From Crambe crambe (Eukaryota; Porifera; Demospongiae; Poecilosclerida; Crambeidae): 64,000 nucleotides of DNA. A program made the position numbers and the translations under genes. A model generated the notes under the pieces. That model saw only the letters and a list, made by a program, of their open reading frames with translations. It was not told where the DNA came from and searched no databases. The stretch is from positions 186,001-250,000 of the forward strand of contig OZ004593.1 in assembly GCA_963924555.1 (NCBI GenBank), given 5' to 3'. Below are positions 6,590-64,000 of this stretch, in pieces. The first letter of the stretch is position 1. Each line of letters opens with the position of its first letter.

Positions 6590-9503
6590 CTATGGTGAAT
6601 GAGTAGGTGAGTTATGACCAGTCTGCTCCAGTTCAACTGCCATCTTGTTGGTGGCTGCCACTACATAATCATTGTCATTGTTGTCCATGGCTGTTTCTGT
6701 TTCTGCTTCATTGGGAAAGTCTGCCTCTTTAACTTCATCATCTTCCTCCCTGTCAACCTCCTCCATTGTATGTAGTCGATGTCTCTGACGTAGAACAGAA
6801 CCTCCACTCCCACTCAACTGTGTGTGTGTGTGTGTATATACAATTAATACATAATTATAAGAGTGAGGAGAGATCTCGTTCCTCCGTCACCCTGTCTTCC
6901 TTATTTTCAGGCTGAGGAGTAGCTCACTCTGAGACTAAGTAACTTACTTCCAGAAGTTGACCAGATAGTTTTCGTTGGGCAGTCATGTGTTTCTTGAGTG
7001 CTGGTTCTTGTCCTTCCTCATCATCCAATGGAACTTCTGTTGGATTGATAGGGTAAATAGCGATGTCCCTCACCACTCTGAATTGACCACAATTATTCAA
7101 ATGCTCGTTTTCAAGACGGAAAAAGTTCCAAATAAATCTCCTGAACACCTCGAGGGTGGCAAGAATGGTACCCAGAAGGTTCCCCTCCAGAGAACTGATC
7201 CCTGCCTCCCCGACTGAGATGTTCAGAGTCCACAGAGAACGGAGAATCAAATCTGCCACAATCGCCAAAATATAGTAAATCTACGCAAGAATCATAGCAG
7301 AGGTCATTTCACCAGATTGAATAGAAGTCACCATTAATTTTATACCTTTTTAGGATATATGAGTTCATCTCTGAGTTTTTTGGGAGTTGGAAATAGCCCC
7401 CAGTCCATTTTGATGTCCCAAGTGAAGGTGTAGCATGTGCTCACAATGGCAGACACAATCCAAAAGAAGAACATTGCATAGTAGCGACCAGGTTGGGAGT
7501 GAAAATCAACTGATGGATCTGGGAGATGTGAACATGTCATATGAGGCATGTCATGTGACTAGGGAGTCATGTCATGTGACTAAGGAGCCATGTCATGTGA
7601 CTAGGGGGCATGTCATAATGTCTAACCTTTGAACCCTGCAGCAAGGGAAGAGAATAAGACAACGAAGAATGAAGTGGAGTACTTTCCAGCATTGACCAGG
7701 TGAGGGAAGATATTTCTGGGTTTGGTCACATAGTAACGGTTGACACACTGGGCAAACCGGTACCATGCTGGCAATATGGCTACTACTGGCCTCACAGCAT
7801 AAGCCACTATTGTGGACAGATCTGCAAAAAAAAAAGCCAAGACTCACTCAATGCCTTTGCACTATCACTTCAAACAATCACAATGTCATACCAAAAATTT
7901 TTGTACATGTGTCATGTGAATGGGGATGAGTTGTGTACCTGGAAGGAGAAGACCAAAGACCAGAAAACGGAAGAAGAACTCAAGATCCAGAAGAACAACT
8001 GATAAGCTATTCATCTGATCCGCTATCCAGAAATCAGCAAAGTTAACACGGACAAATGGAGCAAAAAAAATCCGTCCCTGCATGGAGAAATTTAAAGCAA
8101 GCACATAAGGATCTCCCTATAGAGCCGAAAGTGCCAGCATTCCACTTAGTGCCCACCAAGTTCTTAGTTGTAGGAACATACGGAGATGATCTTGGCCAGC
8201 CAAAAGCGGGAACTTGCGTACAAGAAAGGAAGAGGGAGTACAAAGAGAAGAGCCAGGATCACCAACATCGCAAGTGGCCNNNNNNNNNNNNNNNNNNNNN
8301 NNNNNNNNNNNNNNNNNNNNNNNNNNNNNNNNNNNNNNNNNNNNNNNNNNNNNNNNNNNNNNNNNNNNNNNNNNNNNNNNNNNNNNNNNNNNNNNNNNNN
8401 NNNNNNNNNNNNNNNNNNNNNNNNNNNNNNNNNNNNNNNNNNNNNNNNNNNNNNNNNNNNNNNNNNNNNNNNNNNNNNNACACAAGACTTGGACATCGCA
8501 CCTGAAAAAGTTGTACAAAGTTGAGGTAATCCCTAGGATTGAACTCAAAGATGAGCACACGATTGACTCCTGCTTTCACCCAACGAAATGTATTGAAAGC
8601 AAAGGAGCAGAACCAGAGAGTCAGGATGAAGCCTATTCTCAGTCCCCTGATGGTGGGGTCCAGATACTTCCATGAATCCCTTGGACGAAGAGCTGCAGCC
8701 ACAGTGATCACAACCACACTGACACATATGAAGCCAAGGAGTATGCCCACCACAAGTGTCACCCAATGGGAACGAACTTCCCTTTTCTCAAAAGACGGCA
8801 ATCTCAGTTTGTTCATGGCCTTGCTTCTATTTCCATTTTCTAACTTATCGATCATCAGATTCTCCGTCTGTTCAATCAGATCATTTAAGATTTTCTTGCA
8901 CCTCCAGAAGTGCGATTCACAAACCTCATCGTTTAAAAACCGCTTTCCACGATCACTACATGCTAGCTTATCATGCTTCTTCAACACTTTGCGAAAACCA
9001 GAGTAGTTCAGCTGCTGAAAGTTCTGCAGCAGAGATAAACTAAGGTAGAATTCGGTTACAGCATTTTTCAAGCTCTCGAGTTTGTTCCGAGTGGAACGAA
9101 GATTGCGTGTCCTCTTGTTGGCTTTTAAGGCGATGAAGATTTCTACTTCCTCACACAGCTCCCTCATTCTGAGTGATGATTGAGTCTCACGCGTACGATA
9201 AAAAGAGTCAACTCCCCTTAATTCTTTCTTTGTTTCCACAAAAAACTCGTCCTGAAGTTCTTCATTCACAATTGTTATAGGGCGTACATCTTCTACAAAA
9301 TACAGAAATATTAATGCTGGTCTGGTACCCATAATATTTGAGCCAGTCAGTGGTCAATTCACACACTCACCATCTTCTTCTTCAGTTTCAGGTTTTTTCT
9401 TGGTGATCATTTCATACACTCTGGCTTTCAGGCCTTCGTAGTCCACATAATACTTCCTCCACTCAGGAGTGAGATGCGAGGACAAGCGATGAGCAAACCT
9501 CAT
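6590..9503 (-). CDS. XPR1: XPR1 phosphate exporter (SPX + EXS domains)
   Basis: Exons (minus strand): 9503-9371, 9292-8502, one or more in the assembly gap, -8182, 8077-7939, 7822-7627, 7518-7346, 7280-6948 and 6817-6590. The N-terminal SPX domain starts [26 protein letters not shown] and senses inositol pyrophosphates. After it come several membrane segments ([20 protein letters not shown] and others). The C-terminal EXS domain is very well conserved ([68 protein letters not shown]). XPR1 is the animal inorganic-phosphate exporter of the plasma membrane. Part of the first EXS transmembrane region is lost in the gap. The acidic C-terminal tail diverges from vertebrates. It shares a 230-base promoter region with DAXX. 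Confidence 0.95.
7548..7622. repeat. Short tandem repeat built on GTCATGTGACTAGGG, XPR1 intron
   Basis: Three to four copies of a unit of about 20 bases, CATGTCATGTGACTARGGRG. The core octamer TCATGTGA lies at 7551, 7572 and 7593. It lies in the intron between the exons at 7822-7627 and 7518-7346. Confidence 0.85.
8280..8479. other. Assembly gap (200 N)
   Basis: A run of exactly 200 N inside XPR1. It removes the exon sequence between LNFVQLFQ and [12 protein letters not shown]. Open frames that run through it (runs of X) are meaningless. Confidence 1.
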
Positions 9504-9733: not shown

Positions 9734-11255
9734 ATGTGTGCTGATTCCTTGAGCAGATCCTCTCCTTCAACCTCCACTACTGCTGTACCAACTGCCCCTC
9801 CTCCTCAACCTGCTAATCCTGCTGATCGTCCCCAAGCTTCTACTGCCCTCAACTCTCTAAGCATCCAGAGACGGAGGGAAAAAAGAAAATATGCCATCAA
9901 GAAACTAGAAAAGAAACTAGAGCAATATAGTAGACAGATCAAAAGGTTAGTGGATGTATATAAATGCTGTGGCTAGAGTACCAGCAGGAAGTCATGTATT
10001 ATAAAACAGTACTCGTTTATCTAGCCCTAGCCCCACCCTTTCCCCATGAGCATAATATTAATTTGATGTATAGTCGATATACGAAGTATATATTCGAAAT
10101 AAAATGTAAGATGAGGGAGGGGTTAAGGTGACAAAGTGAAATTTGCAGGTGTCTATTGAAATCTAAAGATCAAAGGGTACCCTAATGTCTTTCTCATTTC
10201 TTAGATTGAGTGAGGAGGAGGTAAGTCTGGATGAAATGCTCTCGGGAAACAGTGCCTACCTGAAAGAGGATTACCTCAAGAGACATTTCATGGCTAAATG
10301 GATAGAACTATGCAATCTCTTGAAGATTTCCCCTAACATCGAAGTGGTTCACGAGGATGGAATGGGTGATGGTTATTCGGAGACTCCTTATCCTGAGATC
10401 AATAGGAGAGTCCAACGTTTATTGAGAACTAATGAATTTCCGGATTACGTTGATATTTCTGAACTGGTGGAGAGATGCAACACCAAACACAACTTGGGAA
10501 TTGGAGCAACTGAAAAAACTGAGCTCTCCAGGAAAATCTTCAAGAAAGTGGGCTCGATCCTCAAGTCACGGAGGGAAAAGGATTACAAAGCACATTTTGG
10601 GTCTCACCTGACTGATGCTGTGAATGAGTCAGACGATCCGGCAAGTACTGATGAAGTGCTACAGGAACGTCTCAAGGAGAGCTTCAAACAGGGTCAGGAG
10701 AAGTTATTTGAACTCTGTGAGGACTTTATAGTGAAGCAAGAACAGGAAGGAGAGAAAGCGGGCAGTTCACCTGATTCTAAGGAGGAGGAGGAAGGAGAAG
10801 AAGAAGAAGAAGAGGGGAGTATTGAGAGAGAAGAACTTATCAAAGACGAGGAGTTGTGTGGAGAAGATGAAGTAAGCTCTCCTGCTCAAGAAGAAGAAGA
10901 GGAAAAAGGACTCATGGAAGAAGATAGTGAAGATGAGGAGACTGGTCCTCCAGCAAAAAAAATAAAACTTGGCTACCAGCAAGACCTAAAATTTAATGTT
11001 TCCAGCACCAGAAGTAGTAGCAGTAGCAGCAGCAGCAGCAGCAAGCACTCACTTTCCCCAGTGGCTGAATCAGAGCAGGACTCCAGTACTGATGGTAATG
11101 CTATAGGCAGCGGCAGCAGCAGCAGCACAGTGGATGTTGAAGCACTCCCAGATGATGAGCAGACACAACCAGACTCCAGCACTTCTATCCCAGTCATATA
11201 TATCTCAGATTCTGATAGCAGTGATGTCATTGATCTCTGTGATGAGTCTAGCTAG
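9734..11255 (+). CDS. DAXX: DAXX, H3.3-H4 histone chaperone
   Basis: Two exons, 9734-9945 and 10205-11255. A Ser/Pro-rich head leads into the DAXX helical bundle (KKLEKKLEQYSRQIKRLSEEEVSLDE, then SAYLKEDYLKRHFM) and the histone-binding domain (YPEINRRVQRLL, NEFPDYVDI, ILKSRREKDYKAHFGSHLTDA), matching the order in vertebrate DAXX. Then comes a long Glu/Asp-rich region (about residues 240-330), a Ser run, and a C-terminal SUMO-interacting motif (IPVIYISDSDSS), as in human DAXX, which also ends in an acidic SIM. With ATRX, DAXX deposits H3.3 in heterochromatin and represses transcription in the nucleus. Start chosen as the first ATG after the promoter region. ATRX is not in this window. Confidence 0.92.
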
Positions 11256-11356
11256 CTGCTACCAGCTACATTAAACTTTATATGAAATATTTTGACATCA
11301 TCCAAGAAACTTTATAGGTGTTGTAGCCCCACCCCTTGACTGGATTTGGCGGGAAG

Positions 11357-12272
11357 ATGGAGGGTGATGATTTCATCATCACGAGAAAGAGCAGGAGAGT
11401 GAAGAAGCCAACCTTCAAAAAATATTTAGATGATTCCGATGGCAGTGGAGGTAAAGATCGGTAGCTAGCATTGAGTCAGTTTACAACTCATTGAGTCTTT
11501 AGATGATTTTGCTCTACCTTCATTGAAGAAGACGCGGGAAGAGAAGTCATCCATTGATACTCCTAAACCTACAAGGTAAGACAGCAGTATTCAACTTCGC
11601 TAGCCAATCAACTCTTCTTCTTTTCTAAGGTTATCTAGAGAGGAGAAGCAGTTTAACTGGACAATGGCAAAAGTGTTGGCTGAGTCTGAAAGGATGAATG
11701 GTCCAGCAGTCACTGGTTCAGAACAACTTGATTCTTCTTCCAACTCAGTGGAACATCCAGCAGACTTGTCGGATGACAACAGTGATTTTGAACCAGAAAC
11801 TTCCAAGGAGAATGTCACTGACAGTGATGATGATTTCGAGCCATCTTCTCCTCCAACAAAGAAAACCAAAAAGGTTGCTGGGAAAAAGGCAACCACAGCA
11901 AAGAAGGTGTCGAACAACAGAAAATCAGTGAATCAGAAGAAAGAATCAGCTGTCACTAACACTACAAGTAAACCTCAAATTTCTGTCAAATCTCGGCCTG
12001 ATCTTCCAAAATCTGTTGCAGTAAGGCCCGCCAATCTCCCGGGAGCTAAACCCTCCTCAATTGGATCCACTAACAATACCAGCAACAGCAGGGAGACCCA
12101 TAGACCCAAGTGGGTTCCTCCCACAAAGATAGGAAGTGGCGACAATGCTGTCAAAAGTCCATGTACATGTGTAGGGGGGACTGCCCCTCCAATTAGACTA
12201 GGTTTATCAAGAAAGGCCAGAATCAAACCGTTGCATAAAATTCCTTTACAAACAAAAAATCAAATTACTTAA
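11357..12272 (+). CDS. RAD51AP1: RAD51AP1-like DNA repair protein
   Basis: Three exons, 11357-11450, 11503-11575 and 11630-12272. The N-terminus has the basic R-S-R-R-V-K-K-P-T-F-K-K-Y then DDSDGS pattern of RAD51AP1. Residues around FNWTMAKVLAES sit where the vertebrate protein has its central conserved helix. The C-terminus (PPIRLGLSRKARIKPLHK) closely resembles the RAD51-binding end of RAD51AP1 (LRLGLSRLARVKPLH). The middle is disordered, Lys/Ser-rich with acidic SD patches. The family binds DNA and stimulates RAD51-mediated strand invasion in homologous recombination. It follows DAXX on the same strand with only 101 bases between stop and start. The assignment rests mainly on the two ends, so confidence is moderate. 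Confidence 0.75.
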
Positions 12273-12332: not shown

Positions 12333-14914
12333 TTACCAGTCAATAGTCCAAAAGCAAGCTTTTCTGTCAGCTCCAGTGGATGCAAAGAGTTTTCCCTCAG
12401 GGTGCCAGCGACATTGAATCACCTTATCAGAATGCTGACAGAGTTCAGTCCACCTGTACTGCTTTGTATCGGTAAGGCATATTGTCCCATCATATGAGCC
12501 ACTCAGGATCCAACTCCCAGTTCTGGAGGTGGTGTGGTGAGCGTGTGGATAGAAACGAACAGATCTACACTCATCAGTGTGTGGTGCAAATGTTGACACA
12601 CATTTAAACATGTTCATATCCTGGACAGTACACTTCCCATCAAGATGAGCAGTCACCATCATCTCGTGCCAGCATGCCAGACTGGCCACTCCCGAGTCCA
12701 GTTTCAGGATATTAACAGGTTGTTGCATTCGAATATCCCATAAAAATACATTTTTATCCTGCCCACCAGAAGCAATCAGCCCTCCAGGCAGATTTCCCAG
12801 AGCCAACACTTGATCGGTGTGGCCAGCGAGAGACATCACACACTGCCTTGTTTGTATGTCTATTAACTTGACTTCCATTGATCCACCACCTCCAGAGGCT
12901 AGCAAACCCTCCTGTGTGAACATCACATCTCGTATTGTTCCACATCTGAGAGGGATCGGTTTATGGGTCCTGAATTTGTAGCCAGAGGACGACTCTGGCA
13001 CACAGGTCAGGAGGCGGACACAGTGGTCATTGGAGCCAGAGGCCAACACACTATCATTCAACCAAGCAAGACAGTAGATGGAACTTTTATGGTAGTGAGG
13101 AAACGGTTGCATATCCAACTCCTCTCTGCATGATCATTGAAGGAATCATCATCTCAAAAACAATGACCCGAGTCTTCAGCTGTCTCACCTTGGGTGCTCT
13201 TGTAACAGTGATGTAGTGTAGCACACTCTCAGCATCCGAGAATTTGTACCTACTGCCACAAACTTGCCCGATCCAGAGAAGGCCACTGACCGTACTACCT
13301 GGATAATGACATACAAAACAGCCATATGAATCACTGCTGCTCTATCTATAAATAGTTACACCCTCCACTTTATACCTGAGGGTCAGAAAGAGTGCTGATT
13401 AGTGAAACAGTGGGAAACCGTTGGCTTTCTTCCTCACTAGAAAATCTGATATGATTCCTTGCTCCATTGTGGGTTTGTAATGGGAGAGCTGAATTAGTTA
13501 AGGGTTCTACTTCCTTACTGGGAAGAGCGGAATTGATTGGAGATGAAGGAGGGGAAGTATTAAGGGAGGCACGTGAGGACTTGACGTTCTTTGGCGTGGA
13601 AGAGTCTCTGCCAGTTTTGGGAAGTGGGGTGGTGCTAGGAAAGAATCCAGGCTTGTCTTTCATAGAGAAATCTGATCGGTCATTCTTAGGTGACTGAAAT
13701 GGTGGAGTAGTGGGAATCACAAACTCGGTTGCTTCGATTTTTGCTTGTACTAATGGTGACTCGGGGATATTTGTTGCATTTGATGCAGTTTCCAGAAGCC
13801 CCTTCCTGTTTACTTTAGCAGTCGGGATATCTCCTTCTCCTGAAAGCAGCTTTCCAGCATCTCTGGAACTTTGGTTACTTGGCACAGAAGCAGACCTCGA
13901 AGTCGGATGTTTAAGATTGAAAGGGAAATCAGTTCTATTGGCAACTCCCATGTCAATACTTGCCATTTGTAGTTCTGGTGGAAGAGGCTTAGTCCAAGGT
14001 GTCACAACTAACGACAGCTCTGAAGGCTGCAGTTGGAAAGAGCTATCAGGTTGTTGCTGTATCCACGCCCCCAAGTCCAGCATACCAGACACCTGCTCCA
14101 TACTTGCTTCTCCACATCTTGTTCTGCAGATTCGCTCACACTGCTCATAGAGCAGTCCCTTTGCAAGGAGTTTGAGGAGAGTGCATGATTGCTCCAACTG
14201 ACCTGTTGCTTCTACTTTTGGAAACTTCACATTGAGATAAAGAACTTTGGAAATCCACCCTCCAATTTCGTAAAATGTTTCCAATCTTCCAGAATGGAGC
14301 TGCCATTTGGAGAATTCCTTGCTAGAGGCGAAAGACGGATAAGAAAAAAGTCTTTGAAGAGATTGGAAGTGGTCTGAAGTTGGGCAAAGAGGTTTTATTG
14401 CAGCAAGTTGAGCTTCCATAAACTTGTGCAGCTTTTCAGTTTCATGAGGACTCAGTATCTCTTCATTCTCATAATGACCAAATCCCAAACGAAGTCTGGA
14501 ACGAATATCTGACTGAATGTGATGAAGGATCTCCAAACATTTTTGCTTGTGGGCAGCATATCTGCACCTTGTCAGACCTTCCTTGTCTGCCTCACTCACT
14601 TCATTAAATGCATCCAAATATTTGAATACTTGGTCCCACTTGCCCTCCAGGGTCAGTTCTCTTAATGCAGCCAACTCCAAGGGTAAGGAGTTCAGCCGCT
14701 GAGAGGAGGAAGGGGCTGGTTGTAGCGGTGGTGTTGCAGCCTGGCTCTGCTTTCCGCTGCTACCTAAGCTGCTACTAGACCGAGTGCTTGTAGCGAAATA
14801 GTTCTCCAAAGTGACCAGACACTCTGCATGACCTCCTTGCTCAAAATACTCTCGAATCAGCTCCAGAATAGCTCTTTCTTCGAGGCATGCATCTCGAATT
14901 ACCGAGACATTCAT
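12333..14914 (-). CDS. WDR47: WDR47 (LisH/CTLH + WD40 protein)
   Basis: Exons 14914-13376, 13298-13189 and 13125-12333. The N-terminal LisH/CTLH part is seen in ERAILELIREYFEQGGHAE and LRELTLEGKWDQVFKYLD, followed by a Ser/Pro-rich linker. The C-terminal WD40 propeller tracks human WDR47: VVRSVAFSGSGKFVAVGTNS, HYHKSSIYCLAWLNDS, SGSNDHCVRLL, GTIRDVMF, DECRSVRFYPHAHH, SDKVIQCRWHPEGK and a final blade ending WTIDW. Vertebrate WDR47 acts on microtubules (with CAMSAP proteins) in neurons and in ciliary and sperm axonemes; a neuron-free animal carrying it points to the older microtubule role. It is convergent with RAD51AP1, with 60 bases between stops. Confidence 0.88.
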
Positions 14915-15048
14915 AATGGTGGCTCAAGAAACTCTTTGCAGCTAGCGTTTTGTAAATAAATTAATAATATGATAATGAGTTTGCATTGTAATTAGTTACC
15001 GTGGTAACATGTATACCAGTAGTGAGTGGGTGGTATGTGGTCTCACAA

Positions 15049-16701
15049 TTACCAGTCTGGACGTGAACTAACTGGTATCACTGTGAAAATCACAGAGTCT
15101 GATTTAGTCATGAGGTCATAGACGTCATCGACAGAGTTGTCACTGATATTCTTCCCATTCACTCGAATGATTTGGTCCCCGGGAGTGATAAGACCAGTGT
15201 AAAACTTCTCAGCTGTTGAATCTGCAAACCTTGACACAAAAACCCCTTTCTTGCTTGGAGTCTGTGAGATGTAAATGCCATATCTCCCACTGGGTGGCTT
15301 GTACAGCTGGATCATGTGCAATTTACCTGCTTTCTTATCGATCATCCGACCAACGGCCCTGGGTTGGGTGGGCTGGCTGATAAACTCTAGATCCTCTTCA
15401 TAATCAACCCACCCTTTCCTTATATGGTAAGTCATCCGATCGGAAAAAGATCTTTTAACCGGAAGCCGTTTCTTCAAGTGACTCTCATCTCTGAAACTTC
15501 CTCGTTTTCGTTTCAGCCTCTGAAGGAAGCTTGAACTTCTCTTTGGAGATTTGGTGTTAGTAGCAGTGGTGTGAAGTGGGGATGTAGAACCTGTCTCTCT
15601 GTAACGGTTAGGAACAATGTGTCCAGGACTGGTATGTCTGTGTGTGGTCATGTGAAGAGGACTGGGTCGAGGAGTCAAGCTGTCCTGATAAAACAATGTT
15701 CCACGCTTCGGGAAGTAAGTAAGTCTTGGGCTCCCCTGGACATACTCTGTGTCTGAGTCAGATGCATTGTTAGGGTAGACAATGGTGACTCGTGGAGTCA
15801 AATGTTCCTGTTTATGAGGCCGTGGAGGAGTCCATTCCTCTCCGTTCTCCTCCTCCCCCCCCTTTAGTTGTGTTTGTGGGTGCTTCCTTTCCAGAGTTGG
15901 TGTGCTGGCCCAGGAATTGGAACTTGAATCAGAGGGAGGAGATCTGTGTGGAATTGAAACAGGATCTGTACTTGAGATTGTCTGATGCTGAGGAGGGACA
16001 ACTTTAGATGGACTCTGTTTGGGAGATAGAGAAGGAGGAGGATGGGACTCTATGGACTTTAGATGGATGACTTCAGCTTGGAGCATGGTAGGTAAAGTAG
16101 AGGGAACAACTTCTTTAATACTACTGCTTTGGTGATGTGTGGAGGTTTGAGGTGTCTTGGATGATGGAGTGGAGCTGCGGAAATGACTAGAAAATTTCTT
16201 TCTCTTGGAGTAGAAGAATTCTGGAGAAGGGGAGGAGCCAGGACTGACCCCTGCTGACCTCTGTTGGGCTCTGGAGTGATTCTTTTTTCTCCGTTGTTCT
16301 TTCCTGTAGTGTGAGTCTACAGATCGTGGCTTTTGATGACTGGGATCTTGTTGATTCTGACTCTGGCTTCTTGCAGAGGTTGGCTGAGATGTTGGAATAG
16401 TGCGGTAGGCCAGAGGTGGGGTTAAGATGGAGGGCAGGTAGCTTGTCTCCACAGGACTAATCTTGAAAACTTGAGAATTCACTGATTCTGTATCTTCAGA
16501 ATAATGGGAATCGAATGCACTGTCAAATTTAGAATTGGAATGGAGACTATCCCTGGAGTTGGAATGGTGACTGCCTTTGGAGGTACTGGTGGAATTAATG
16601 CTATGAATGCTGATTCTGTCCAGTTCATCTGTGAGCATCTGCATGCTTGAAGCTGTGTTGAGCACCAGATCGATCAATTTTGAATTACTACTGGGCTCCA
16701 T
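15049..16701 (-). CDS. Single-exon protein with one C-terminal PDZ domain
   Basis: Single uninterrupted exon of 550 codons. Residues 1-400 are Ser/Pro/Thr-rich and look disordered, with basic patches (KEQRRKKNHSR, FLQRLKRKRGSF). The last about 90 residues form a PDZ domain: LHMIQLYKPPSGRYGIYI as the carboxylate-binding segment (GRYGI replacing GLGF), GVFVSRFADSTAEKFYTGLITPGDQIIRVNG, and VDDVYDLMTKSDSVIFTVIP. PDZ domains bind C-terminal peptides of membrane or junction proteins. I do not recognise a named orthologue. An in-frame stop lies upstream of the ATG at 16701, which supports that start unless an intron precedes it. Confidence 0.8.
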   Translation of the reverse strand: MEPSSNSKLIDLVLNTASSMQMLTDELDRISIHSINSTSTSKGSHHSNSRDSLHSNSKFDSAFDSHYSEDTESVNSQVFKISPVETSYLPSILTPPLAYRTIPTSQPTSARSQSQNQQDPSHQKPRSVDSHYRKEQRRKKNHSRAQQRSAGVSPGSSPSPEFFYSKRKKFSSHFRSSTPSSKTPQTSTHHQSSSIKEVVPSTLPTMLQAEVIHLKSIESHPPPSLSPKQSPSKVVPPQHQTISSTDPVSIPHRSPPSDSSSNSWASTPTLERKHPQTQLKGGEEENGEEWTPPRPHKQEHLTPRVTIVYPNNASDSDTEYVQGSPRLTYFPKRGTLFYQDSLTPRPSPLHMTTHRHTSPGHIVPNRYRETGSTSPLHTTATNTKSPKRSSSFLQRLKRKRGSFRDESHLKKRLPVKRSFSDRMTYHIRKGWVDYEEDLEFISQPTQPRAVGRMIDKKAGKLHMIQLYKPPSGRYGIYISQTPSKKGVFVSRFADSTAEKFYTGLITPGDQIIRVNGKNISDNSVDDVYDLMTKSDSVIFTVIPVSSRPDW

Positions 16702-17147
16702 GCATGGAAAAGGGGGTGGGGCTCAGATCTCACTCACAATCCTGCAGAGGCCAACTTACTCTTCTCTTTTCATCTAAGCAGTATTAGAATTCTTGTATCA
16801 ACTGCAAACACTATAACCACTGTGTCCAGTTACCTCCAAATTGGAGAAGCTTTGCAGAATCAGCACGTCTATCTTCATCTTCTTCTTTGCAGCCTCCATT
16901 ATCGAACGGCGATCACATGACATGACAAGAAATGCAACAAAGGGCGTGTCTTTTCTATTTTAGGAACACAAAAGATTTGTAAGTTCTTTTAGAACTTGAA
17001 CAGGGAATTCCTGTGGGGAAGGTTCTCCTTTCCCTGGCTGCCAGCACTGTAAACCAATACTTAAGGCTGTGAAAATGAACTAAGAGACTTAAATATCATC
17101 ACTAATACTCTATTACCTTGGTTAGTTTAGTCACTTTCTACAGCGCC
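16702..17147. promoter_or_regulatory. Divergent intergenic region, PDZ gene / syntaxin
   Basis: 446 bases between opposite start codons. On the minus strand a small open frame starts at about 16898 (MEAAKKKMKIDVLILQSFSN) and runs into a GTAACT donor-like site after 22 codons. It could be an upstream ORF or a non-coding-leader exon of the PDZ gene, but no acceptor continues it in frame. A TCACATGA octamer lies at 16913. Nothing else was recognised. Confidence 0.4.
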
Positions 17148-19441: not shown

Positions 19442-20711
<1,270 letters not shown>

Positions 20712-25100: not shown

Positions 25101-25911
25101 GCTAAGGGGGGAGGTGAGGAGAGCGGAGGAGAGGGAGAGGGAGTGGCATATCTCATGTGAGCAGCTGCAGAGCAAAGTGCAAACATTGACCAATGAGAAT
25201 CACCAGCTACGTACAGGACACTTAAACAAGGTGAGACTGCTGTGGAACTTCTAAATAAAGCACACCTTGACTCTTGCTCTGTTTGGAGCACAGATTCAAG
25301 AGCTTCAGGAATTGCACAATTCTCAATTGACTTCACGTGAGGAGCAAGCAAGTGCCCATCGCCTCCAACTCCAGCAAATAACGCAACAAGAGAGAGCACG
25401 ACAAGAAGAACTTTCACGCTGCAGGTGAGGACTAGGCCCCTATTATAAGTTAGATTACCCATTATACTCTCCCTGTCCTGTAGGGCGCAAGTGACTTCTC
25501 TTTCGGCAGAGCTCTCAGCTGAAAGGAAAGTGGGAGAAGAGACCAAAAAAGACCTCGCCATAGTTCGAGCTGAAGCCAGCAGATACCAGGAACAGGTCAG
25601 GGCAGAGAATAGTTGTGAGAGAGAGTCTTTCCCTCTAGAAATGGACGAGCTAACATGCTGTTTCCCTGTAGGTAGCTACTCTTCAGAGAACATTTGCATC
25701 ATTGCAAGATATGGCTCTAGAAGGCACTCCCACAAGCTCTTCAGGGAGTGACACGCTCCTGTTGCCTAGTAACAGTGTTCCTCAAGTGGCCTCACTAACT
25801 ACCACCTCACAATCTTCGCTACCCGAATCCACCAATCATAATCGCCGCTCACCACCACTTCAGTCCCCTGCCTCCCCTATTCCTGCCAAGGGAAACATCA
25901 TCACTGTTTAA
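22129..25911 (+). CDS. Long coiled-coil protein, unidentified
   Basis: Exons 22129-22202, 22260-22308, 22368-22670, 22740-23294, 23359-23632, 23685-23932, 23983-24624, 24712-24957, 25021-25230, 25294-25424, 25484-25595 and 25672-25911. It has a Ser-rich head, then a coiled coil starting AYDRVAILEAQLQKLQEKV, a Ser/Thr/Pro linker (exon 22740), and about 700 residues of almost continuous heptad-type Glu/Lys/Leu/Gln helix, ending in a Ser/Pro tail whose last residues are NIITV. No catalytic domain is visible. Proteins of this shape are commonly centrosomal, ciliary or Golgi scaffolds; no specific orthologue is claimed. The intron at 24958-25020 is a GC-AG intron (AAG|GCAAGT): reading through it meets a stop, so its removal is needed. 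Confidence 0.8.
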
Positions 25912-40014: not shown

Positions 40015-40134
40015 CTTGTAGATCCACACTCAAATGATCGAGCTAAGTCATGCAACACTACAGACCACGCTCACTCCGCTCCATTTATAGGAAAAAAATA
40101 ATCCGATTGTCTAATTTTGAATTGCATGTGGACA
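40015..40134. promoter_or_regulatory. Divergent promoter region, POMT1 (-) / POLR1H (+)
   Basis: Only 120 bases separate the start codons, so both transcripts must start here. TTTATAGG near 40084 is the only TATA-like string. Confidence 0.6.
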
Positions 40135-47747: not shown

Positions 47748-47903
47748 TTTCTCTGTTGCAGTGTCACTAGCTTCTAACACACGAGGAAAGTCACTTGGGT
47801 CCGGGTCGCCCCTTCAATGATCTGAGCATGCGCTATGCGCTCAGATTTGATGTGCTTTATTTGGAAAAACACTGCCAGCTCCTCATTGAGATTTCTGCAT
47901 TGA
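47748..47903. promoter_or_regulatory. Divergent promoter region, BAG6 (-) / NELFB (+)
   Basis: 156 bases between the start codons. An open frame in phase with NELFB extends upstream of its ATG into this region, so the true NELFB start could be earlier or this may be leader sequence. No consensus element identified. Confidence 0.55.
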
Positions 47904-52046: not shown

Positions 52047-52090
<44 letters not shown>

Positions 52091-55000: not shown

Positions 55001-55896
55001 ATACATTTCTTTAGAAGAACACAGCACAAAAGGTTGCCAGGCATGCAAGAAAGCTACATGTGAGGGCGGCAATCCTTTTCTGCTGTTAACTATTCACTTG
55101 TTGCAGCTGTGGAATTCTGTACAACATCACTATTTGTAATCTCATGGGCTTTCTGCAAAGAACACCAGTTGATAGAGCTATTCTTCTCCTTGCCCCCTAT
55201 AATCAACCAATTCTTACTATGAAAGAGATGGAAATGGCCACGTCTATCAATCTGATTCTCACCTGGATTTTCCTTCTTTGCACTCGCTCTTCCCTGAGGA
55301 ATGACCCTCTTCACCATCTTGATATTTCTAGTGGTATCATTGCAGATTAACAGGATGTCAGGCACAGATAAAATCATCGCTTCAAGGGAGGAGAACCCCC
55401 AATGATGGTAGGCAATGTAATGATGGAAACGTTTAGCAAAGGCCTCATTGAAAGACTTGAGTGCAATTCCATTTGGGTGGGAGAGCATTAGCTCTTTGAG
55501 TCGTATCTTGAATATTGGGGGCACCTCTGGTTCTTTTGGTTCCGGCTGGTAATTCTTTGTCACCATGTTTAAGTGGACGTGTGATGAAGAGCACGTTCCC
55601 GGACGGCTCCTTTGCTTAGAGACTAGTTTCTGAATATTTGCTGTTTTACTATCAGCCACACCATACAGTGTGACGTTATTTCGTGTCCGGCAGATGCTAA
55701 CAACGTCCGGCATGGATTGGATGAAATCCATGAAGTTGGAGAAACCGAGGAAGTGGTACGGAATACTTTCACCCAGCATTTGAAGGTAGTCGTTTTGAAG
55801 CTGTCTGGGAGTGCATCCATGCTTGCTGGAGATCAACAGCGCTCTGATTTCTCTCTTTAACGTCGGCAAATCCTTCACTTTGCAGTCGCTGGCCAT
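50080..55896 (-). CDS. LOTUS-Tudor protein, TDRD5/TDRD7 type
   Basis: The first exon (55896-55263) holds two OST-HTH/LOTUS domains (LPTLKREIRALLISSKHGCTPRQLQNDY and IFKIRLKELMLSHPNGIALKSFNEAF). Two further LOTUS-like modules follow around 54920-54540 (IPWTILEHIKCFLQANEAGIW) and 54450-54030 (VSQELIAAIHRTLKGVTQGIPLSSF, then VNECGFPVEEMGF). An extended Tudor domain lies at 53900-53000 (YVTEVRSPSSLFIQLIG, NNDGYWYRAEVEKL, RIKYVDYGNIAELP). The C-terminus is Pro/Gln-rich (polyQ at about 52590) then acidic and repetitive to the stop at 50080. LOTUS proteins bind and stimulate Vasa-type helicases, and Tudor domains bind methyl-arginine of Piwi proteins, so a germ-granule/piRNA role is inferred. One Tudor favours TDRD5; retaining the sequence after 55263 would give a short LOTUS-only product ending at 55090. 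Confidence 0.85.
50560..51470 (-). repeat. Coding repeats in the LOTUS-Tudor C-terminus
   Basis: Two levels. An about 370-base unit occurs twice (roughly 51470-51100 and 51050-50730), encoding GPEVPRVSDAIESEEVSSKEE, LEKEMVCLDL, AMSSEIPV-PLEEAT and PVPTHEDRGS. Inside it, GPEVPRVSDAIESEE is itself tandemly duplicated at about 51060-50960. From 50750 to 50560, about seven 30-base units encode MPPHEDxGS variants. All are in frame. Confidence 0.85.
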
Positions 55897-56002: not shown

Positions 56003-57118
56003 ATGGCAGCTCTGGAAGGAGAAGACCATGAATATGACAGTCAGAAGAGAGAGGAATGGGCTCCACATGTGCTGGACTATGGATACTATAGTGCTTTGAA
56101 ATCTGGTAGTATTGATGGCACAGATAAACTGCCTCATGACCATGCTACTGTCAGAGCAATGAATTCAAACTGTAAGTTGTAATAGACTGCCAATGCTGCT
56201 GTTCTTAATGCACCTCAAAATTTAATACCAGATTATCCTAACAAGCAGGTGAAGGGAGATCCAGAGAAAACCTTATTTATCGCTAGACTCAGTCATGATA
56301 CTACCGAAGGTGAGGTGATCTTTTTCCCTATGATACGTCAAGTGATCCGTTCATAACAACTCTAATAGAGGTGCTGCAGAATGCTTTTTCCAAGTATGGA
56401 AAGATTGAAAGCTGCAGACTAGTGCGTGATATTGGTATGTAATGGTGTCAGTCTAGTACCACTAAACCACACCCCAATGTTACCCAGTCACTGGAAGATC
56501 AAAGGGTTATGGATTTGTGGAATTCAAACACTCAAAAGACACGGAGAAGGCACATCAAGTGAGTGAGTATCAATGAGATATTTTCAGTGAGATATTTTAA
56601 GGCCGCGGTATTTAACTGTTTCTCAGGCCCTTCCTCCCTCCTCAATTTGGACAGTTCTTGCCTGGGATTAAATTACCACAGCCTAATGTTGTCTTTTGTG
56701 CAGGCTTGCCACCACATGTTTCTGGATAATGCACAGCTGTTAGTGGAGTATGAGTGTGAGAGAATTCTCCCTGGATGGGTTCCTAGACGATTAGGTATTC
56801 ATTTTCAGTACTTGTACCATTAGAGTTGATTCGTTTTCTGCTATTTTCAGGTGGTGGATTAGGAGGAAAGAAAGAGTCTGGTCAGTTAAGATTTGGAGGG
56901 AGAGAGAGAGCATTCAGGAAACCCATGTAAGTCCACTTTTGGAGTTTTAGTACTTGTGTTCAAGTGAGACTTATTCCTTTAGTGTTCTTGGGAGTAGACC
57001 CTTGGGGAAAAGAGAGGGTCCTGGATCTGGTTGGCAAGGAAGAAATATAAGAGAGAGATATCGAGAAAGAAGTCCACCTAGCTATTCTTCTCGAAGAGAC
57101 TTTAGAAAACACTATTAG
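56003..57118 (+). CDS. SNRNP35: U11/U12 snRNP 35 kDa protein (minor spliceosome)
   Basis: Eight exons: 56003-56171, 56232-56309, 56369-56434, 56488-56558, 56704-56794, 56851-56926 and 56983-57118 (with one possible extra split). [21 protein letters not shown] matches the family N-terminal signature. The RRM has RNP2 (TLFIARL) and RNP1 (SKGYGFVEF). The post-RRM block [31 protein letters not shown] is almost identical to human, and an RS-type tail ([18 protein letters not shown]) ends it. It is specific to the U11/U12 di-snRNP that recognises U12-type introns, so its presence implies a working minor spliceosome in this organism. Confidence 0.96.
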
Positions 57119-57196
57119 ACTCGACTACTGCGTTTTTTACACTGACGATACTTACCAACACATGTTCATTGCTTACGACCTTTACCAATAATTACT

Positions 57197-58120
57197 ATGA
57201 TCTATCTTAGATTTGTCTTCAGTCTCTTCCTTTCTTTATTGTTCTCCTGGTATGGAGTTAGGAGAAAATCCTTGAATTTATCAGGAGGTGTAGCTGCTAT
57301 TGTAGTGGGTGCTGTTTTAACTGCTGCCAATGGCTGTTTCTGCCTGGCTCTGCTTGCTTTCTTCTTCACTTCTTCCAAACTGACGAAGTGGAAAGGATCT
57401 GAGAAGAGGAAGCTGGAGCACGACTTCAAGGAAGGTAATTTATACCTGTCTTACTAAATATAGCATTCTATTCATAGCTCCATTTCTGCAGGTGGGCAGA
57501 GAAACTGGGTTCAAGTGATTTGCAATGGGGGTGTGGCAACTATTGCAGCCATATGCTATGTACTCAGTGGTGGTGGATTTGAGGAGCACCCATTTTATCT
57601 CAATCACCATCCATACACTTTATCAGCTGTGGCATGTATTTCTGCTCTGGCCTGCTCCTGCGGAGACACGTGGGCTTCTGAAGTGGGCTCAGTGATTGGA
57701 GGAACCCCTTACCTGATTACTACTTGGAAACGAGTGCCCAGAGGTACGAATGGAGGTGTGACTCTTATAGGGATCGTGTGCAGTTTTGCTGGAGGGGTAG
57801 TGGTGGGTGTGGCTTATTTCGCTGGCCTGGCAATGCTGGTTGGGTTTGAATCACAAAGAGATGCACTGTCCCAATCCTCTGTCATCCTCCTAGGAGGCAT
57901 GGCAGGATTGGGAGGGTCTTTGGTGGACTCTTTGTTGGGAGCAACTGTACAATACTCTGGCTATTCTGAGAAAGGAGGTTGCATTGTCCACCAACCGCTA
58001 GGCAAAGATGTTAAGCATATATCAGGATGGAATATTCTAGATAACCATTCTGTTAACTTTGTTTCATCTGTACTGACAGCACTCATTGTTCCACTGTTTT
58101 TATACCTTTTTATGATTTGA
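57197..58120 (+). CDS. TMEM19: TMEM19 (DUF92 membrane protein)
   Basis: Two exons, 57197-57434 and 57492-58120, about 288 residues with six or more membrane segments. Family blocks seen are GGVAAIVVGAVLTAANGCFC, FFFTSSKLTKW, CSCGDTWASEVGSVIGGTPYLI, VPRGTNGGVTLIG, GSLVDSLLGATVQYSGY and the end DNHSVNFVSSVLTALIVP. DUF92 also contains plant phytyl-phosphate kinase (VTE6) and archaeal/bacterial relatives; the animal protein's function is not established. It starts 78 bases after the SNRNP35 stop on the same strand. Confidence 0.93.
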
Positions 58121-58162: not shown

Positions 58163-59131
58163 CTACATGATTGTGTCCAAGAGTGTTCTAATAGTTGGAT
58201 CACTAGTTACTTCGATTGGTCTCCCTCCATCACAATCACACAAGTTCTTATCAACACCTGGCACTAAGAGGAGAAACTTCACCATGTCTATGTGACCACA
58301 TGATGTAGCTGAAAAAAGAGAATGGTTCTGTAGTTAGTTGACAGTTTAAGCCATCACACCCTTACCATAATGGAGAGGAGTTTGTAAGTCACAGTCTTGT
58401 CGATTAATGTCTGCACCTTCTTCCACTAGTAAATGAGCAACCTCCAAGTGTCCTCTGTCACAAGCCCAATGTAAAAGGGACATTCCCTGTGATTACATGG
58501 AGAGTAAAATCCTACAATAATATCTTTAATCATAATGAACCTCTTCATCCAATGTGTTTACATTGTTCCTTGTTACCACGGCAGCCACCTTTGCCACTTG
58601 GCCATCTTTGCACCAATCGAAAATGTTTTTTTCCTCATCTGGGATATCTTCAACACTGTTCATTAGTGTGCTAACCACAGGGCCCACTCCTCCTCTTCCC
58701 TCGTCAGTCTTTCTCACATCATCTGATGGTGGAGGGATCTTCTGCCACTGAGGATCTAACTTATTCACAAGCTCTACATACTTCTTCATGGCTTGCTCTG
58801 TTGACATGGTCCCTAACTTGCTCCATGCATCCCTAAAATAAAACACTGGATCACACTAAGACCATCAAGTTTTAATAATACCACTCACCATTTAGCCCTA
58901 CCAGACATGTCAAATATTCCAGGCTTTGATATGGTGCAGGGACCTTCACTGGCCTGTATTAAAATAATATGCCTTTCCTCTCAGACTCTAGCAATAACTC
59001 TTTTCTACCTGCTTGAAAAGTCCATAGAGGTTGAGTTTTTGTTCCGTTGGTAGTTTCAGCTTTCTATTGTTTCTCATACATTCCGCTGCTTGCTGGAATA
59101 CTACTTCTATACTTATGTCTCCAGTGGCCAT
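58163..59131 (-). CDS. ACBD6: ACBD6, acyl-CoA-binding and ankyrin protein
   Basis: Exons 59131-59009, 58953-58889, 58832-58541, 58486-58366 and 58308-58163. The N-terminal acyl-CoA-binding domain reads FQQAAECMRNNRKLKLPTEQKLNLYGLFKQ, GRAKWDAWSKLGTMSTEQAMKKYVELV. A linker leads to two to three ankyrin repeats (GMSLLHWACDRGHLEVAHLLVEEGADIN, TPLHYATSCGHIDMVKFLL). Same order and size as human ACBD6, which binds acyl-CoA and supports N-myristoylation. Confidence 0.96.
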
Positions 59132-59247: not shown

Positions 59248-61194
59248 ATGAGTGTGCTACACAGACTGACTGGATTTGGGCTGGTAGGTTGTTGTCCTTA
59301 CATACCATCATCTGACTAAGCTAGATGAGTAGAAATTAGAAAAGAGTGAGTGTGTAAGCTTAATCTTTCTGCAGCTGGCTGTTCAGCATGTCCAGAAGAT
59401 GTCTATCATTTCAAAGGTGATGTGTGGGGCTACTTTGCTCTTTTACTGTCTGGGTTATATTCCTAGAGTGGAGGAAAACCTGGCAATGATTCCTGCATAG
59501 TAAGAGTGGTGTGCTTTAAATAGAGGTACATCACACCTCTTTTTTTTTTTTTTTTTTTTGTAGCCTTGGGCCTCCCAATGTAAAGATTTGGACATTAGTG
59601 ACAGCAGTGTTTTATGAAAATAGAATTCTAATGGTAAGTGGTGTTATGATGATGTGTAGCACTGGGATGGCATAGCTATAGGTCTGGTTGTTATTTCTTG
59701 CTAGGTGCTACTGGATTGTGCTGCAATTGTTGGACTATTATCGTTCCTCGAGCCTCTGTGGGGTCTAAAGGAACTCATGGTATGACAAGATATTCCATGG
59801 CAATTCCATTATAAAATACAGTATAAACCTCTGAATAATGGACCCAGCCATTGTCCTTTGTTAAAGAGGTTTGTTCTCTTTCGGAGTATTTTTATCAGAG
59901 GTTCCACAGATCCAACATGAGGTGTTTCCATCACCTACATTAATATTATTTATAGATATTTTCTGGGATAGTGGGAGTGGCCAGTCTGGGTTCTGGCATG
60001 CTGGTTGCAGTGATCATTTATGCTATTTCTCGTTCTTATAGTTTTCTGTGAGTTAAACCCTTTACCAACTTCTGCCTATAGTCTAACATACATAATTGCC
60101 TTTTTTAAATTCAGTTTTGCTCCTTTCCATGGTTTGGTGGGTCTGCTATGTGGATACATAGTAGCCGTCAAGCAGCTCCATCCTGACAGTGTTCCATTGC
60201 CTCCTCCAGCCCCACCTACTCTCAGAGTTAAGGTATGGAAGGAAGGCACTTGGTTTTTCAGCAGGGCTCACAGTAACACTCAATTATTATCTGGACACGA
60301 TTGTATAGTGAAAGTCAGACATAGGCAGAAAATGACTGGACAAATGAAAGAGATTGACCGGAAAGTGTCCTGTGACTGACTGTTATTGTCAGCCCTCAAA
60401 TGGGGCAAGAATGCTTCCTCAGCCATGGGAGCGTACACATAATCTACTTCCTACTCTCATCAGTCCTACCTCTTTCTCCCCTGCATGCTATATAGCATCT
60501 TCCTGTTCTACTGGTTCTGCTATCCTTCCTGTTTGCCATAATTCATCTGGTTTCTTTTCCTTTCCTGTGGCTGGTGTTAAGTGGGAGTACCACTTCTTGG
60601 ATCTACCTTCGTTTCTACCAGAAGAAAGAGCAGGGATCACGTGGAGACATGTCGGAAGGATTTGCATTTGCCACTTTTTTCCCAGAACCAATCCAGTAGG
60701 TGTACAAATTCGTGTTTTAAAATGTTCCCCAATTAACAAAAGTTACTCACCACAGACCTGTTCTGGCTAGTTTAGGCGGATTTGTCTTCCATCTCTTGGT
60801 CTCGATCAAGATTTGTCCTAAAACAGTCAGGACGTACGATGTCAGTGCCTCATCCACTATCAAACTGACCCTGCCTGGGACAGATCCAGTGGATGCACAA
60901 CGGAGAAAGTGAGTCAGCAATCTTTTGTACAGGTAATAGTTATGGGAATTATTTAGACAACGAGCACTCAAGGCATTGGATGAGAGACTAAAGAAGAGCA
61001 ATGAGCCTCTGACATGGCCCTCTCTCGATGAAGCAAACAGCAGTCAAGATGAGCAATCTTCTCCTGAAGGCAAGGATGCACCACTTCAGCTGGAAGCAGT
61101 GGTGGTGGAAAAAGATACATCAGCCAAGATCGAAACTGCCCCCAGCCCTGATTTATCCCCTCAACCAAATTCTCAAAAAGTTGTAACTGTATGA
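59248..61194 (+). CDS. TMEM115: TMEM115 (rhomboid-like Golgi protein)
   Basis: Small exons starting MSVLHRLTGFGL (59248) and MSIISKVMCGATLLFY, then YLGPPNVKIWTLVTAVFYENRILM, SFLEPLWGLKELM, FAPFHGLVGLLCGYIVAVKQ, then SWIYLRFYQKKEQGSRGDMSEGFAFATFFPEP, LVSIKICPKTVRTYDV, LTLPGTDPVDAQRRK and RALKALDERLKK. This is the exact block order of human TMEM115, a Golgi protein thought to act in retrograde transport, rhomboid-fold without the catalytic Ser/His. The exon ending CCTGCATA|GTAAG looks like a stop if not spliced. Internal exon boundaries near 60360-60480 are less certain: the exon at CATCTTCC (about 60496) directly follows LRVK. Confidence 0.9.
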
Positions 61195-61439: not shown

Positions 61440-64000
61440 ATGGACCAGGAGAACGAGATAGAGAAGCTGCACCATCTGCAAGCCGAGTTGGAGCAGGAAG
61501 CTCGCTCCAGGCGACAGCAAGAAGAGCTCAACTCCAAGCTCCAAGACGAGTACGACGTCCTGCTCAAGAAATTAGCAGAAGCAGAGCTTCATATCGACCA
61601 GTTGAGGCTGAGAGCTAATGTGGACATCAATAAACGCTTCATCCTCTCTCACCAAACCCAACAGTCGACCACTCTCCATCAGAAACTGGAAACTCAATAC
61701 AACCCTGTGGCTACTTGGACAGACACTCAGGGCCTTTCTTCTAACCCCACTTCAACCCAGGCTTCTGTTGGAGTGAGTGAGGATGCACAAAAGAGTGAAA
61801 TGAGTGAACATTCAGGACACCAATCAGAGCAAAGCATGAATTCAGACCAAAAATATGTAGTAGGGACCTCACAACATGCCCCTATTTATTATAATTCTTA
61901 CGAAGACAACTGTGGGGGTAGTTTATCACCTAGTATTTTACATTTTGATCATGAAGAGGAGCTGATTTCTGATAATTCTTCAGCTGAAGAAGATCCATCC
62001 ATATCTCGGATGTCTTCTGGCCGCATCAATACACAGGCCAATGTGGAGAGTAGGACTCTGGCACAGATATTCCTGATACGCAGCCTTCAGGAGCAAATAG
62101 CTAACCTCAAGCACAAAATCCAAGACAACCACTCCTCTGCTGATGAACTTTCTGAAGACTTGGGCTTCATTTTAGCAGAACATAATAAACTTGCGGAGGA
62201 AATTGGGCTCTCCTGTCAGAAGCTGGACACTGAAAGTGGAGCAACGGTTAGAGCCACTAAGGGCAAAAAAACCTTGGAGAAAGAGGTATAGACCATACTA
62301 ATCTCTCTCTCTCTTTAGTTTCTACTATTATTGTTATAATGATAGCATGTATAGTTTTCCTCCCCACAGCTTCTATCTCTGGCTGAACAACTTAAAGAAC
62401 TGGATTCCATACTCAAGTCCAAAAGTCAAGATTCAGGTCACTACTTCAACTTCCAAATTGGAGAACAACACACACAGAGATCTAACCTCATGCACAATAC
62501 CTCTTGGCTCTCCTTAAGCAGTGATGGATCCATTCGCTCACCAAATTCACCGTCTTTGCCATCCAGGTACCTTGCCAAAGAGGTCAGCTTAAAGAGCACT
62601 AACACTTCCACCGAAAGGGCCCTTGAATCTAATTCATCAATGTCCACAATAGAAGGCCTTGAGGAGCTAGAGGAAGATAGCAGAAGAGAAGGAGGGTGGA
62701 GACATGAGCAAACTAGTGTATTGAATGATCTTACATTAAAACATATTACATCTGATCCTAATGACCAAGGCAAAGAGAAAGCTTCCAATCACCCAATGGA
62801 TGAAATTGTAACAACTCCATCTCTTACAGTTTCTGGAAGTAAGAGCAAACAAGATCCCAAACCAAAAGCAGTATTTCGTTCTCGAATACCAAGGCGAATT
62901 CGTGGGTCAACTTCTCTCCCTGCAGTCAATCATCAACACAGTCCAAGAACCAAGACTGACAGTGATTTTTCTGGATCAGAACTCTCTCCGATGGATAGAG
63001 CAAAGATCAGTCCAAAATGGGAGCAAGAACCAGGATCTAGCCTCCCTGATCCTAACTCATGGAAATCCTCCAGTGGTGGTAGTGTGCCTATCAGAAAGCA
63101 GTATAGTGATCAAGAAGGTGATCTAAGACTGAGAATTCCAAAAAATATCTACCAGGAGAAGAGGAACACCAGTAGAGATACAAATGTATCTACTAATCTT
63201 GACACTGGGGAATCATTGCGAATCCAAGAGGATTTAGTACAATTATCCAGTGAGGAAAACTCATCACCCAATGATACTCAGCATCATTACTCCTCAGAGC
63301 AAAGACCCACTGATGGCACTAATCCAGTAGCTATGAGCTTAGGAGTTCACAGGTTCCCTCCAGCCAGACCTGTGATATCCACTACTACTGGATCAGTCAC
63401 AAGTAATTCATCTGGAAGGTCACTATCCAGCACATCAACAAGAGTAGCATCAGTCATGTCGACTTCAGCTGGGATGTTAGGGCCTTCCACAGTAGAACCT
63501 GTATTGACTACTTCATCTAACTTGCTCAGTCCAGTACGAAGTACAGGAGTAGGTAGTGGAGAGTGTGGAAAAGAGCACTTTGATGACGTGAGGGGTCAGA
63601 GAACAGGGCAAGTGAACAAGAGTATTGTACAGCACAGGACGGAGAATGTGGTGCAAGAGTCTATTGGAGAAGAAAGTGTGGACATGGCAAGGAAGGAGAT
63701 GGAGAGTGATGCACCTGTACTATCTGTGTAAGTACTTACATTCTGTTAGTAACCAAAATTTACTCCATTCTTTTCTTTACAGTGATAGTATGGAAGCTCT
63801 GAAGAGAGATTTAGTGGCTTTACGAGAACAAATTATTAACGAGTCACAATCTTTGGTCATCCAGTCACAATCATCCAACTCGACCCATTATCAGTCACTT
63901 CCGACTCACAACCTTGGCTCATCGATTCACCCTGGTAGATTGTCAATGTCACCTAGTGATCAACCTCCTATCAGTAACATTCTGAGTTCTTCCTTACCAC
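61440..64000 (+). CDS. AKNA: AKNA-like centrosomal coiled-coil protein (3' end outside window)
   Basis: Exons 61440-62285, about 62371-63729 and 63783 onward. The conserved AKNA-type motif near the N-terminus is DVLLKKLAEAELHIDQLRLRANVDI, where vertebrate AKNA has EYEALxxKYAEAENTIDxLRLGAxV. A second coiled-coil block follows (RTLAQIFLIRSLQEQIANLKHKIQDN), matching the AKNA central region. The rest is Ser-rich and disordered. Mammalian AKNA was first called an AT-hook factor but is a centrosomal subdistal-appendage protein organising microtubules. The ATG at 61440 follows an acceptor-like TTCTTCTAG|GCTTGA, suggesting a leader intron. Confidence 0.75.

What the first reader, a model, noticed from the sequence alone, without database searches (positions are those of the whole stretch)
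6590..64000. A sponge proto-MHC: the window keeps together genes from all four arms of the human MHC paralogon
Seen: DAXX, POLR1H (ZNRD1) and BAG6 lie within about 38 kb; all three are in or next to the human MHC (6p21-22). Known human positions of other residents: XPR1, STX6, ACBD6, TDRD5 (1q25), TMCO1 (1q24), KCNJ9/10 (1q23), WDR47 (1p13); POMT1, NCS1, NELFB (9q34), AKNA (9q32), TDRD7 (9q22); STX10 (19p13). These are the four paralogon regions 1, 6, 9 and 19. About 14 of some 20 assignable genes fall there. A proto-MHC has been described in placozoans; this suggests it predates the sponge split, and that proteostasis and chromatin genes were linked before antigen presentation existed. Caveats: Kir, NCS and TDRD belong to multigene families, and no test of chance was run.
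Basis: partly seen in the sequence, partly recalled or inferred. Interest (0 to 1): 0.85.

Follow-up and report, generated by a model that had tools for sequence, protein, structure and literature searches.

The report
Ancient animal gene neighbourhood, MHC paralogon
This stretch of what looks like an early-branching animal's genome keeps close together genes that in people lie on chromosomes 1, 6 and 9, which fits a surviving piece of one ancestral animal chromosome; the linkage looks real and old, but nothing in it is specific to immunity.

Summary
The linkage is real; the immune label goes too far. I outlined 23 genes. Sixteen belong to families with an assignable human location, and 12 of these fall in 1p13/1q24-25, 6p21-22, 9q34 or 19p13 (bands recalled). 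Strictly single-copy genes score 9 of 11: chance 2e-4 with whole chromosomes 1, 6, 9 and 19 as background (p = 0.27), 5e-8 at p = 0.10. Counting every unassigned animal gene as a miss and dropping three multi-member families, it weakens to 0.03 at p = 0.27.

The sharpest signal is not the MHC trio (DAXX, POLR1H, BAG6) but four genes of human 1q25.2-25.3: TDRD5, ACBD6, XPR1, STX6. A 774-kb human segment there holds four complete protein-coding genes, ACBD6, XPR1, KIAA1614 and STX6; three of the four are here.

Arm 19 rests on STX10 alone. No classical proto-MHC framework family appeared in the pieces scanned.

Best explanation: one inherited ancestral linkage group, as already published at chromosome scale for demosponges and bilaterians. 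Sponge origin, gene trees and random windows could not be tested.

The parts
4601..6489 (+). nucleobindin-like gene; outside the paralogon (recalled NUCB1 19q13.3, NUCB2 11p15)
   Evidence: model; EF-hands only in Pfam; the name is from recalled sequence pattern
6593..9503 (-). XPR1 (recalled 1q25.3); 200-base N gap at 8280-8479
   Evidence: SPX E 3e-28 and EXS E 7.5e-71; gap
9734..12269 (+). DAXX (recalled 6p21.32)
   Evidence: DAXX_hist_bd E 2.5e-21
12336..14920 (-). WDR47 (recalled 1p13.3); 5' end not at an ATG
   Evidence: WD40; WDR47_COR 22.4 bits, below cut-off 27
15053..16899 (-). PDZ-domain gene, not assigned
   Evidence: PDZ E 1.4e-7
17148..19264 (+). STX6/STX10 pro-orthologue (recalled 1q25.3 / 19p13.13)
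   Evidence: STX6_10_61_N E 1.3e-28 and SNARE; Syntaxin-6 68 bits, Syntaxin-10 62 bits
19454..20708 (+). CDK1-like kinase; outside the paralogon
   Evidence: CDK1 470 bits against CDK2 452
22129..25908 (+). coiled-coil gene, not assigned; 3' end uncertain
   Evidence: model, tail; no Pfam family above its cut-off
26201..30029 (-). TPR gene, not assigned
   Evidence: TPR hits; PINS E 1e-23 and GPSM2 E 2e-20; no GoLoco family listed
30467..31567 (+). TMCO1 (recalled 1q24.1)
   Evidence: EMC3_TMCO1 E 2.5e-28
31789..32874 (-). NCS1 / frequenin (recalled 9q34.11); 5' end approximate
   Evidence: NCS-1 181 bits, hippocalcin-like 168, KChIP1 137
33025..34149 (+). inward-rectifier K+ channel closest to Kir3.2/Kir2; not used in the counts of assignable families
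   Evidence: IRK and IRK_C; ranking
34392..39890 (-). POMT1 (recalled 9q34.13); 5' limit uncertain
   Evidence: PMT E 1e-30 and PMT_4TMC E 7e-25; 9i5k 151 bits, Pmt4 128, Pmt2 102, Pmt1 97
40126..40583 (+). POLR1H / ZNRD1 (recalled 6p22.1)
   Evidence: RPA12 E 6.9e-24; TFIIS-type ribbon
41047..47747 (-). BAG6 (recalled 6p21.33); 3' limit uncertain
   Evidence: ubiquitin E 7e-14 and BAG6 E 3e-7; no PDB match for a 270-aa C-terminal part
47828..49802 (+). NELFB / COBRA1 (recalled 9q34.3)
   Evidence: COBRA1 E 1e-87
50083..55896 (-). TDRD5 (recalled 1q25.2)
   Evidence: LOTUS E 9e-33 (4 stretches) and one Tudor stretch; no further family in two 3' pieces; TDRD5 best PDB match
56003..58117 (+). 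TMEM19 (recalled 12q21.1); outside the paralogon; 5' end not reliable
   Evidence: DUF92 E 2e-77; in-frame stop in the 5' part of the model
58166..59131 (-). ACBD6 (recalled 1q25.3)
   Evidence: ACBP E 2e-29 and ankyrins
59396..60908 (+). TMEM115-like (recalled 3p21.31); outside the paralogon; start approximate
   Evidence: DUF1751 E 3e-4, 21.6 bits, just below cut-off 22
   Evidence: no significant Pfam family

Best explanation
The window is a piece of one ancestral animal linkage group. In vertebrates that chromosome was duplicated and its genes ended up on human 1p13/1q23-25, 6p21-22, 9q34 and 19p13, the MHC paralogon. In this animal 12 such families still lie within about 53 kb. Shown: the gene content, and an excess over simple chance models. 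Inferred: that common descent of linkage, with slow local mixing and little exchange between chromosomes, produced it. The immune functions of the human MHC came later and do not explain this cluster.
For: Gene identities. Strict single-copy genes 9 of 11: P 2e-4 at p = 0.27, 5e-8 at p = 0.10; times 17 linkage groups, 0.004 at p = 0.27. All assignable families 12 of 16; allowing any member of a multi-copy family to count, P 0.001 at p = 0.27. Without the 6p trio that suggested the idea, 6 of 8: P 0.006 at p = 0.27, 2e-5 at p = 0.10. Four genes of 1q25.2-25.3: P 2e-10, about 3e-7 after allowing for all such windows, with 11 genes recalled for the block; 1e-5 with 40 genes. Three of four complete protein-coding genes of the 774-kb segment: 2e-5 to 5e-5 after allowing for 5000 segments. 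9q34 as defined in PMC2756280 (283 genes, passages): 3 of 16, P 0.001; single-copy only 2 of 11, P 0.01. Chromosome-scale conservation between demosponges and bilaterians: PMC10232365 (passages). Four regions on human 1, 6, 9 and 19: PMC10751288 (passages).
Against: Four of 16 assignable families lie elsewhere. The strictest count (9 of 18) gives only 0.03 at p = 0.27 and 0.14 at p = 0.35. The nulls assume independent genes; Copley (PMC12728501, outline and results section) shows that shuffling nulls can overstate significance in multi-species tests. Human bands, gene totals, the 11-gene count and the size of the extended MHC are recalled. The 1q25 block was noticed after the genes were named. 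Orthology rests on domains and PDB sequences, not trees. Nakatani et al. (PMC8302630, passages) call the hypothesised proto-MHC chromosome that joins MHC, NKC and LRC precursors an artefact of later fusions.
Confidence: 0.75

Rival explanations
1. Selection keeps these genes together: most are arranged as tight head-to-head pairs that may share bidirectional promoters, so a break would harm two genes at once.
For: Eight head-to-head pairs with starts under 1 kb apart, 16 of the 21 genes listed; strand-shuffle P 0.016; 16 strand switches of 20, P 0.006 (the list leaves out the first unassigned gene and the transposase gene). Amphimedon is reported with 45% of genes head-to-head (PMC4773876, passages).
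Against: Four of the 21 starts are not ATG codons (WDR47, NCS1, POMT1, TMEM115) and the TMEM19 start is unreliable. None of the eight pairs is shown to join genes of the same human arm. Shared promoters explain pairs, not the block, and compact sponge genomes have many such pairs.
Confidence: 0.12
2. Chance and choice: the bands are broad, families have several members, and the reader chose the best-fitting theme and began the span after the first, non-fitting genes.
For: The span starts at 6590, just past a nucleobindin-like gene and a transposase gene; four assignable families do not fit; three assignments failed or lacked support. Strictest count with widest background: 0.03 to 0.14.
Against: Single-copy genes still give 2e-4 at p = 0.27 and 0.004 after multiplying by 17. 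Four genes of 1q25.2-25.3 are not explained by broad bands.
Confidence: 0.07
3. A functional proto-MHC: proteostasis and chromatin genes were gathered and kept together before antigen presentation arose.
Against: Functions are mixed (phosphate export, syntaxin, Pol I subunit, mannosyltransferase, K+ channel, calcium sensor; recalled roles). No proteasome, complement, notch, homeobox, nuclear-receptor or bromodomain family listed for the pieces scanned. DAXX is ten genes away from the other two.
Confidence: 0.05

Closest known systems
MHC paralogon of jawed vertebrates (human 1, 6, 9, 19; PMC10751288, passages)
   Same: 12 of 16 assignable families have members in those regions (recalled bands)
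   Different: no MHC class I/II gene and no framework family seen in the pieces scanned; arm 19 only through STX10
Ancestral linkage groups shared by demosponges and bilaterians (PMC10232365, passages)
   Same: sets of orthologues staying on one chromosome regardless of order
   Different: only one 64-kb window here; chromosome membership and the group's letter were not determined; tighter local packing
Placozoan proto-MHC
   Same: paralogon genes linked in a non-bilaterian
   Different: not compared gene by gene
Human 1q25.2-25.3 segment with LHX4 (part), ACBD6, XPR1, KIAA1614, STX6, MR1 (part) (PMC7040864, PMC8990796, passages)
   Same: ACBD6, XPR1 and STX6 present, with TDRD5 from nearby 1q25.2 (recalled)
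   Different: KIAA1614 not identified, no MR1 seen, other genes interleaved

Membership tests
MHC paralogon / proto-MHC region | more genes with human members in the 1, 6, 9 and 19 regions than chance gives | tested here: met
   bands recalled; arm 19 only by STX10; the strictest count with the widest background is marginal
MHC paralogon / proto-MHC region | framework families (notch and pbx named in a legend of PMC10751288; RXR, BRD, PSMB, complement, HSP70 recalled) | tested here: not met
   none listed in Pfam scans of the gene pieces; not a six-frame scan of every base, and silent about the rest of the chromosome
MHC paralogon / proto-MHC region | orthology by phylogeny | not tested
   no animal proteomes at hand; domains and PDB ranking used instead
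Ancestral metazoan linkage group | the same genes on one chromosome in several animal lineages | not testable with these tools
   no genome held for the window; the genome collections are prokaryotic
Local linkage shared with human 1q25.2-25.3 | several genes of one small human segment close together | tested here: met
   XPR1, STX6, TDRD5, ACBD6 within 52,539 bases; human segment; P; orthology without trees
Sponge genome | window comes from Porifera | not testable with these tools
   gene content fits an animal; no marker gene and no animal database available

The most novel reading that the evidence does not exclude
A block of about 53 kb in a non-bilaterian animal keeps, at gene-neighbourhood scale and not only at chromosome scale, a founding set of the MHC paralogon, including the neighbours of human MR1 (ACBD6, XPR1, STX6), and head-to-head promoter pairing has helped to hold it together since before the sponge split.
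Probability: 0.15. Interest if true: 0.65.

Novelty: new member of a known kind. Interest (0 to 1): 0.5.

Why it matters
If confirmed with trees and a chromosome-scale assembly, it gives a dated, gene-level anchor for the chromosome from which the MHC paralogon arose, older than antigen presentation. It also shows that part of this linkage is local (1q25 neighbours within about 53 kb), which chromosome-scale studies do not report on, and it separates the history of linkage from the history of immunity.

Tried and rejected
KIAA1614 for the PDZ gene beside STX6 (15053-16899): tempting, because KIAA1614 lies between XPR1 and STX6 in the listed human segment, but no KIAA1614 sequence was available and Pfam gave only PDZ. 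A paper search for KIAA1614 with 'PDZ domain' (2 papers; passages of one read) showed a separate PDZ gene, pfpdz1, listed with stx6 and kiaa1614 in a catfish sex-determining region; left as a lead.

GPSM2 for the TPR gene: PINS/GPSM2 were the best PDB matches, but E 1e-23 and no GoLoco family did not convince; not counted. The model g09 (25076-25693, minus) overlaps the tail of the coiled-coil gene on the other strand and was dropped.

Rows dropped before the count of 16: the first unassigned gene (217-2355), the transposase gene (2558-3941), PDZ, coiled-coil, TPR, Kir, and the last gene. The five animal genes among them that were modelled in full are counted as misses (12 of 21).

Random-window enrichment and extension along the scaffold were not possible: no whole genome is held. 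PDB searches, all 10, and paper searches, all 10, were used. Supplementary tables of the linkage-group papers were not available.
Full report
What was checked. The window has no held genome and no tRNA. I wrote a simple self-trained gene finder, then split or extended its models by eye from six-frame lists. The 23 gene spans cover 56,917 of 64,000 bases; only three gaps exceed 500 bases. One assembly gap of 200 N lies inside XPR1.

Gene order, with strand. An unassigned gene and a transposase gene with an integrase core, nucleobindin-like +, XPR1 -, DAXX +, WDR47 -, PDZ -, STX6/10 +, CDK1 +, coiled-coil +, TPR -, TMCO1 +, NCS1 -, Kir +, POMT1 -, POLR1H +, BAG6 -, NELFB +, TDRD5 -, TMEM19 +, ACBD6 -, TMEM115-like +, and a last coiled-coil gene +. 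Evidence per gene is in the parts list.

XPR1, DAXX, WDR47, STX6/10, TMCO1, NCS1, POMT1, POLR1H, BAG6, NELFB, TDRD5 and ACBD6 hold up, some with weaker evidence: WDR47's specific domain and TMEM115's domain are just below their cut-offs, and a 270-aa C-terminal part of BAG6 found no PDB match. AKNA has no supporting hit. The Kir channel scores higher with Kir3.2 and Kir2 than with Kir4.1, which is KCNJ10. The Tudor gene is closer to TDRD5 than TDRD7 and shows one Tudor stretch.

Is it more than chance? Bands and gene totals are recalled. Strict single-copy genes: 9 of 11 in the four regions, P 2e-4 at p = 0.27 (about the share of whole chromosomes 1, 6, 9 and 19), 5e-8 at p = 0.10; 0.004 at p = 0.27 after multiplying by 17 linkage groups. 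All assignable: 12 of 16. If any member of a multi-copy family may count, P is 0.001 at p = 0.27 and 0.01 at p = 0.35. Without the 6p trio, 6 of 8, P 0.006 at p = 0.27. If the five unassigned animal genes are misses, 12 of 21, P 0.003 at p = 0.27; dropping the three multi-member families as well, 9 of 18, P 0.03 at p = 0.27 and 0.14 at p = 0.35. By arm: 9q34 as bounded in PMC2756280 (283 genes) 2 of 11 single-copy, P 0.01; extended MHC with about 250 genes (recalled) 3 of 11, P 3e-4.

The sharper signal. TDRD5, ACBD6, XPR1 and STX6 belong to human 1q25.2-25.3. Two papers, seen as passages, list the complete genes of a 774-kb segment there as ACBD6, XPR1, KIAA1614, STX6 and two non-coding genes, with LHX4 and MR1 in part. 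Three of these four protein-coding genes lie here, and XPR1 to ACBD6 spans 52,539 bases. P for four genes of an 11-gene block is 2e-10, about 3e-7 after allowing for all such blocks; for three of the four, 2e-5 to 5e-5 after allowing for 5000 segments. The block was noticed after the genes were named.

Meaning. Demosponge chromosomes correspond simply to bilaterian and cnidarian ones (PMC10232365, passages), so a window dominated by one paralogon is expected if this is such a genome. Copley warns that shuffling nulls can overstate linkage (PMC12728501, outline and results). Nakatani et al. regard the wider proto-MHC chromosome that joins MHC, NKC and LRC precursors as an artefact of later fusions (PMC8302630, passages). 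The amphioxus paper PMC7269912 was seen only as two passages that do not map the MHC. I therefore read the window as inherited linkage, not as an immune precursor.

In print? Searches for proto-MHC with sponge (one unrelated paper, passage), proto-MHC with Trichoplax (three), MHC paralogon with ancestral linkage group (one), ancestral linkage groups with Ephydatia and MHC (none), gene-name combinations and proto-MHC with synteny (nine) showed no report of this sponge linkage in the open library; listings were seen, and passages of some. Subscription papers, including the placozoan one, are not held.

An arrangement seen in passing. Eight neighbouring pairs are head-to-head with starts under 1 kb apart, 16 of 21 listed genes (four starts are not ATG codons). 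In Amphimedon 45% of genes are head-to-head (PMC4773876, passages). This fits a compact genome and offers a weak mechanism for keeping neighbours.

Noticed in passing
9503-9734, 16899-17148, 30029-30467, 32770-33025, 39514-40126, 47747-47828, 55896-56003, 59131-59396: Eight head-to-head gene pairs with starts under 1 kb apart and near-strict strand alternation from the TPR gene to TMEM115 (some starts approximate).
   Followed up: partly
2558-3941, minus: Gene with an rva_4 integrase core (E 2e-81) and a helix-turn-helix stretch: a transposase-like element.
   Followed up: no
217-2355, plus: Unassigned gene model ending in a P-loop-like motif (recalled pattern); no convincing Pfam hit.
   Followed up: no
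11630-12269, plus: A RAD51-interacting motif (E 1.6e-7, above its cut-off) near the C-terminus of the DAXX model.
   Followed up: no
15053-16899, minus: PDZ gene head-to-head with STX6; a PDZ gene (pfpdz1) is also listed with stx6 and kiaa1614 in a catfish sex-determining region (PMC9945428, passage).
   Followed up: partly
8280-8479: A 200-base run of N inside the XPR1 gene.
   Followed up: no
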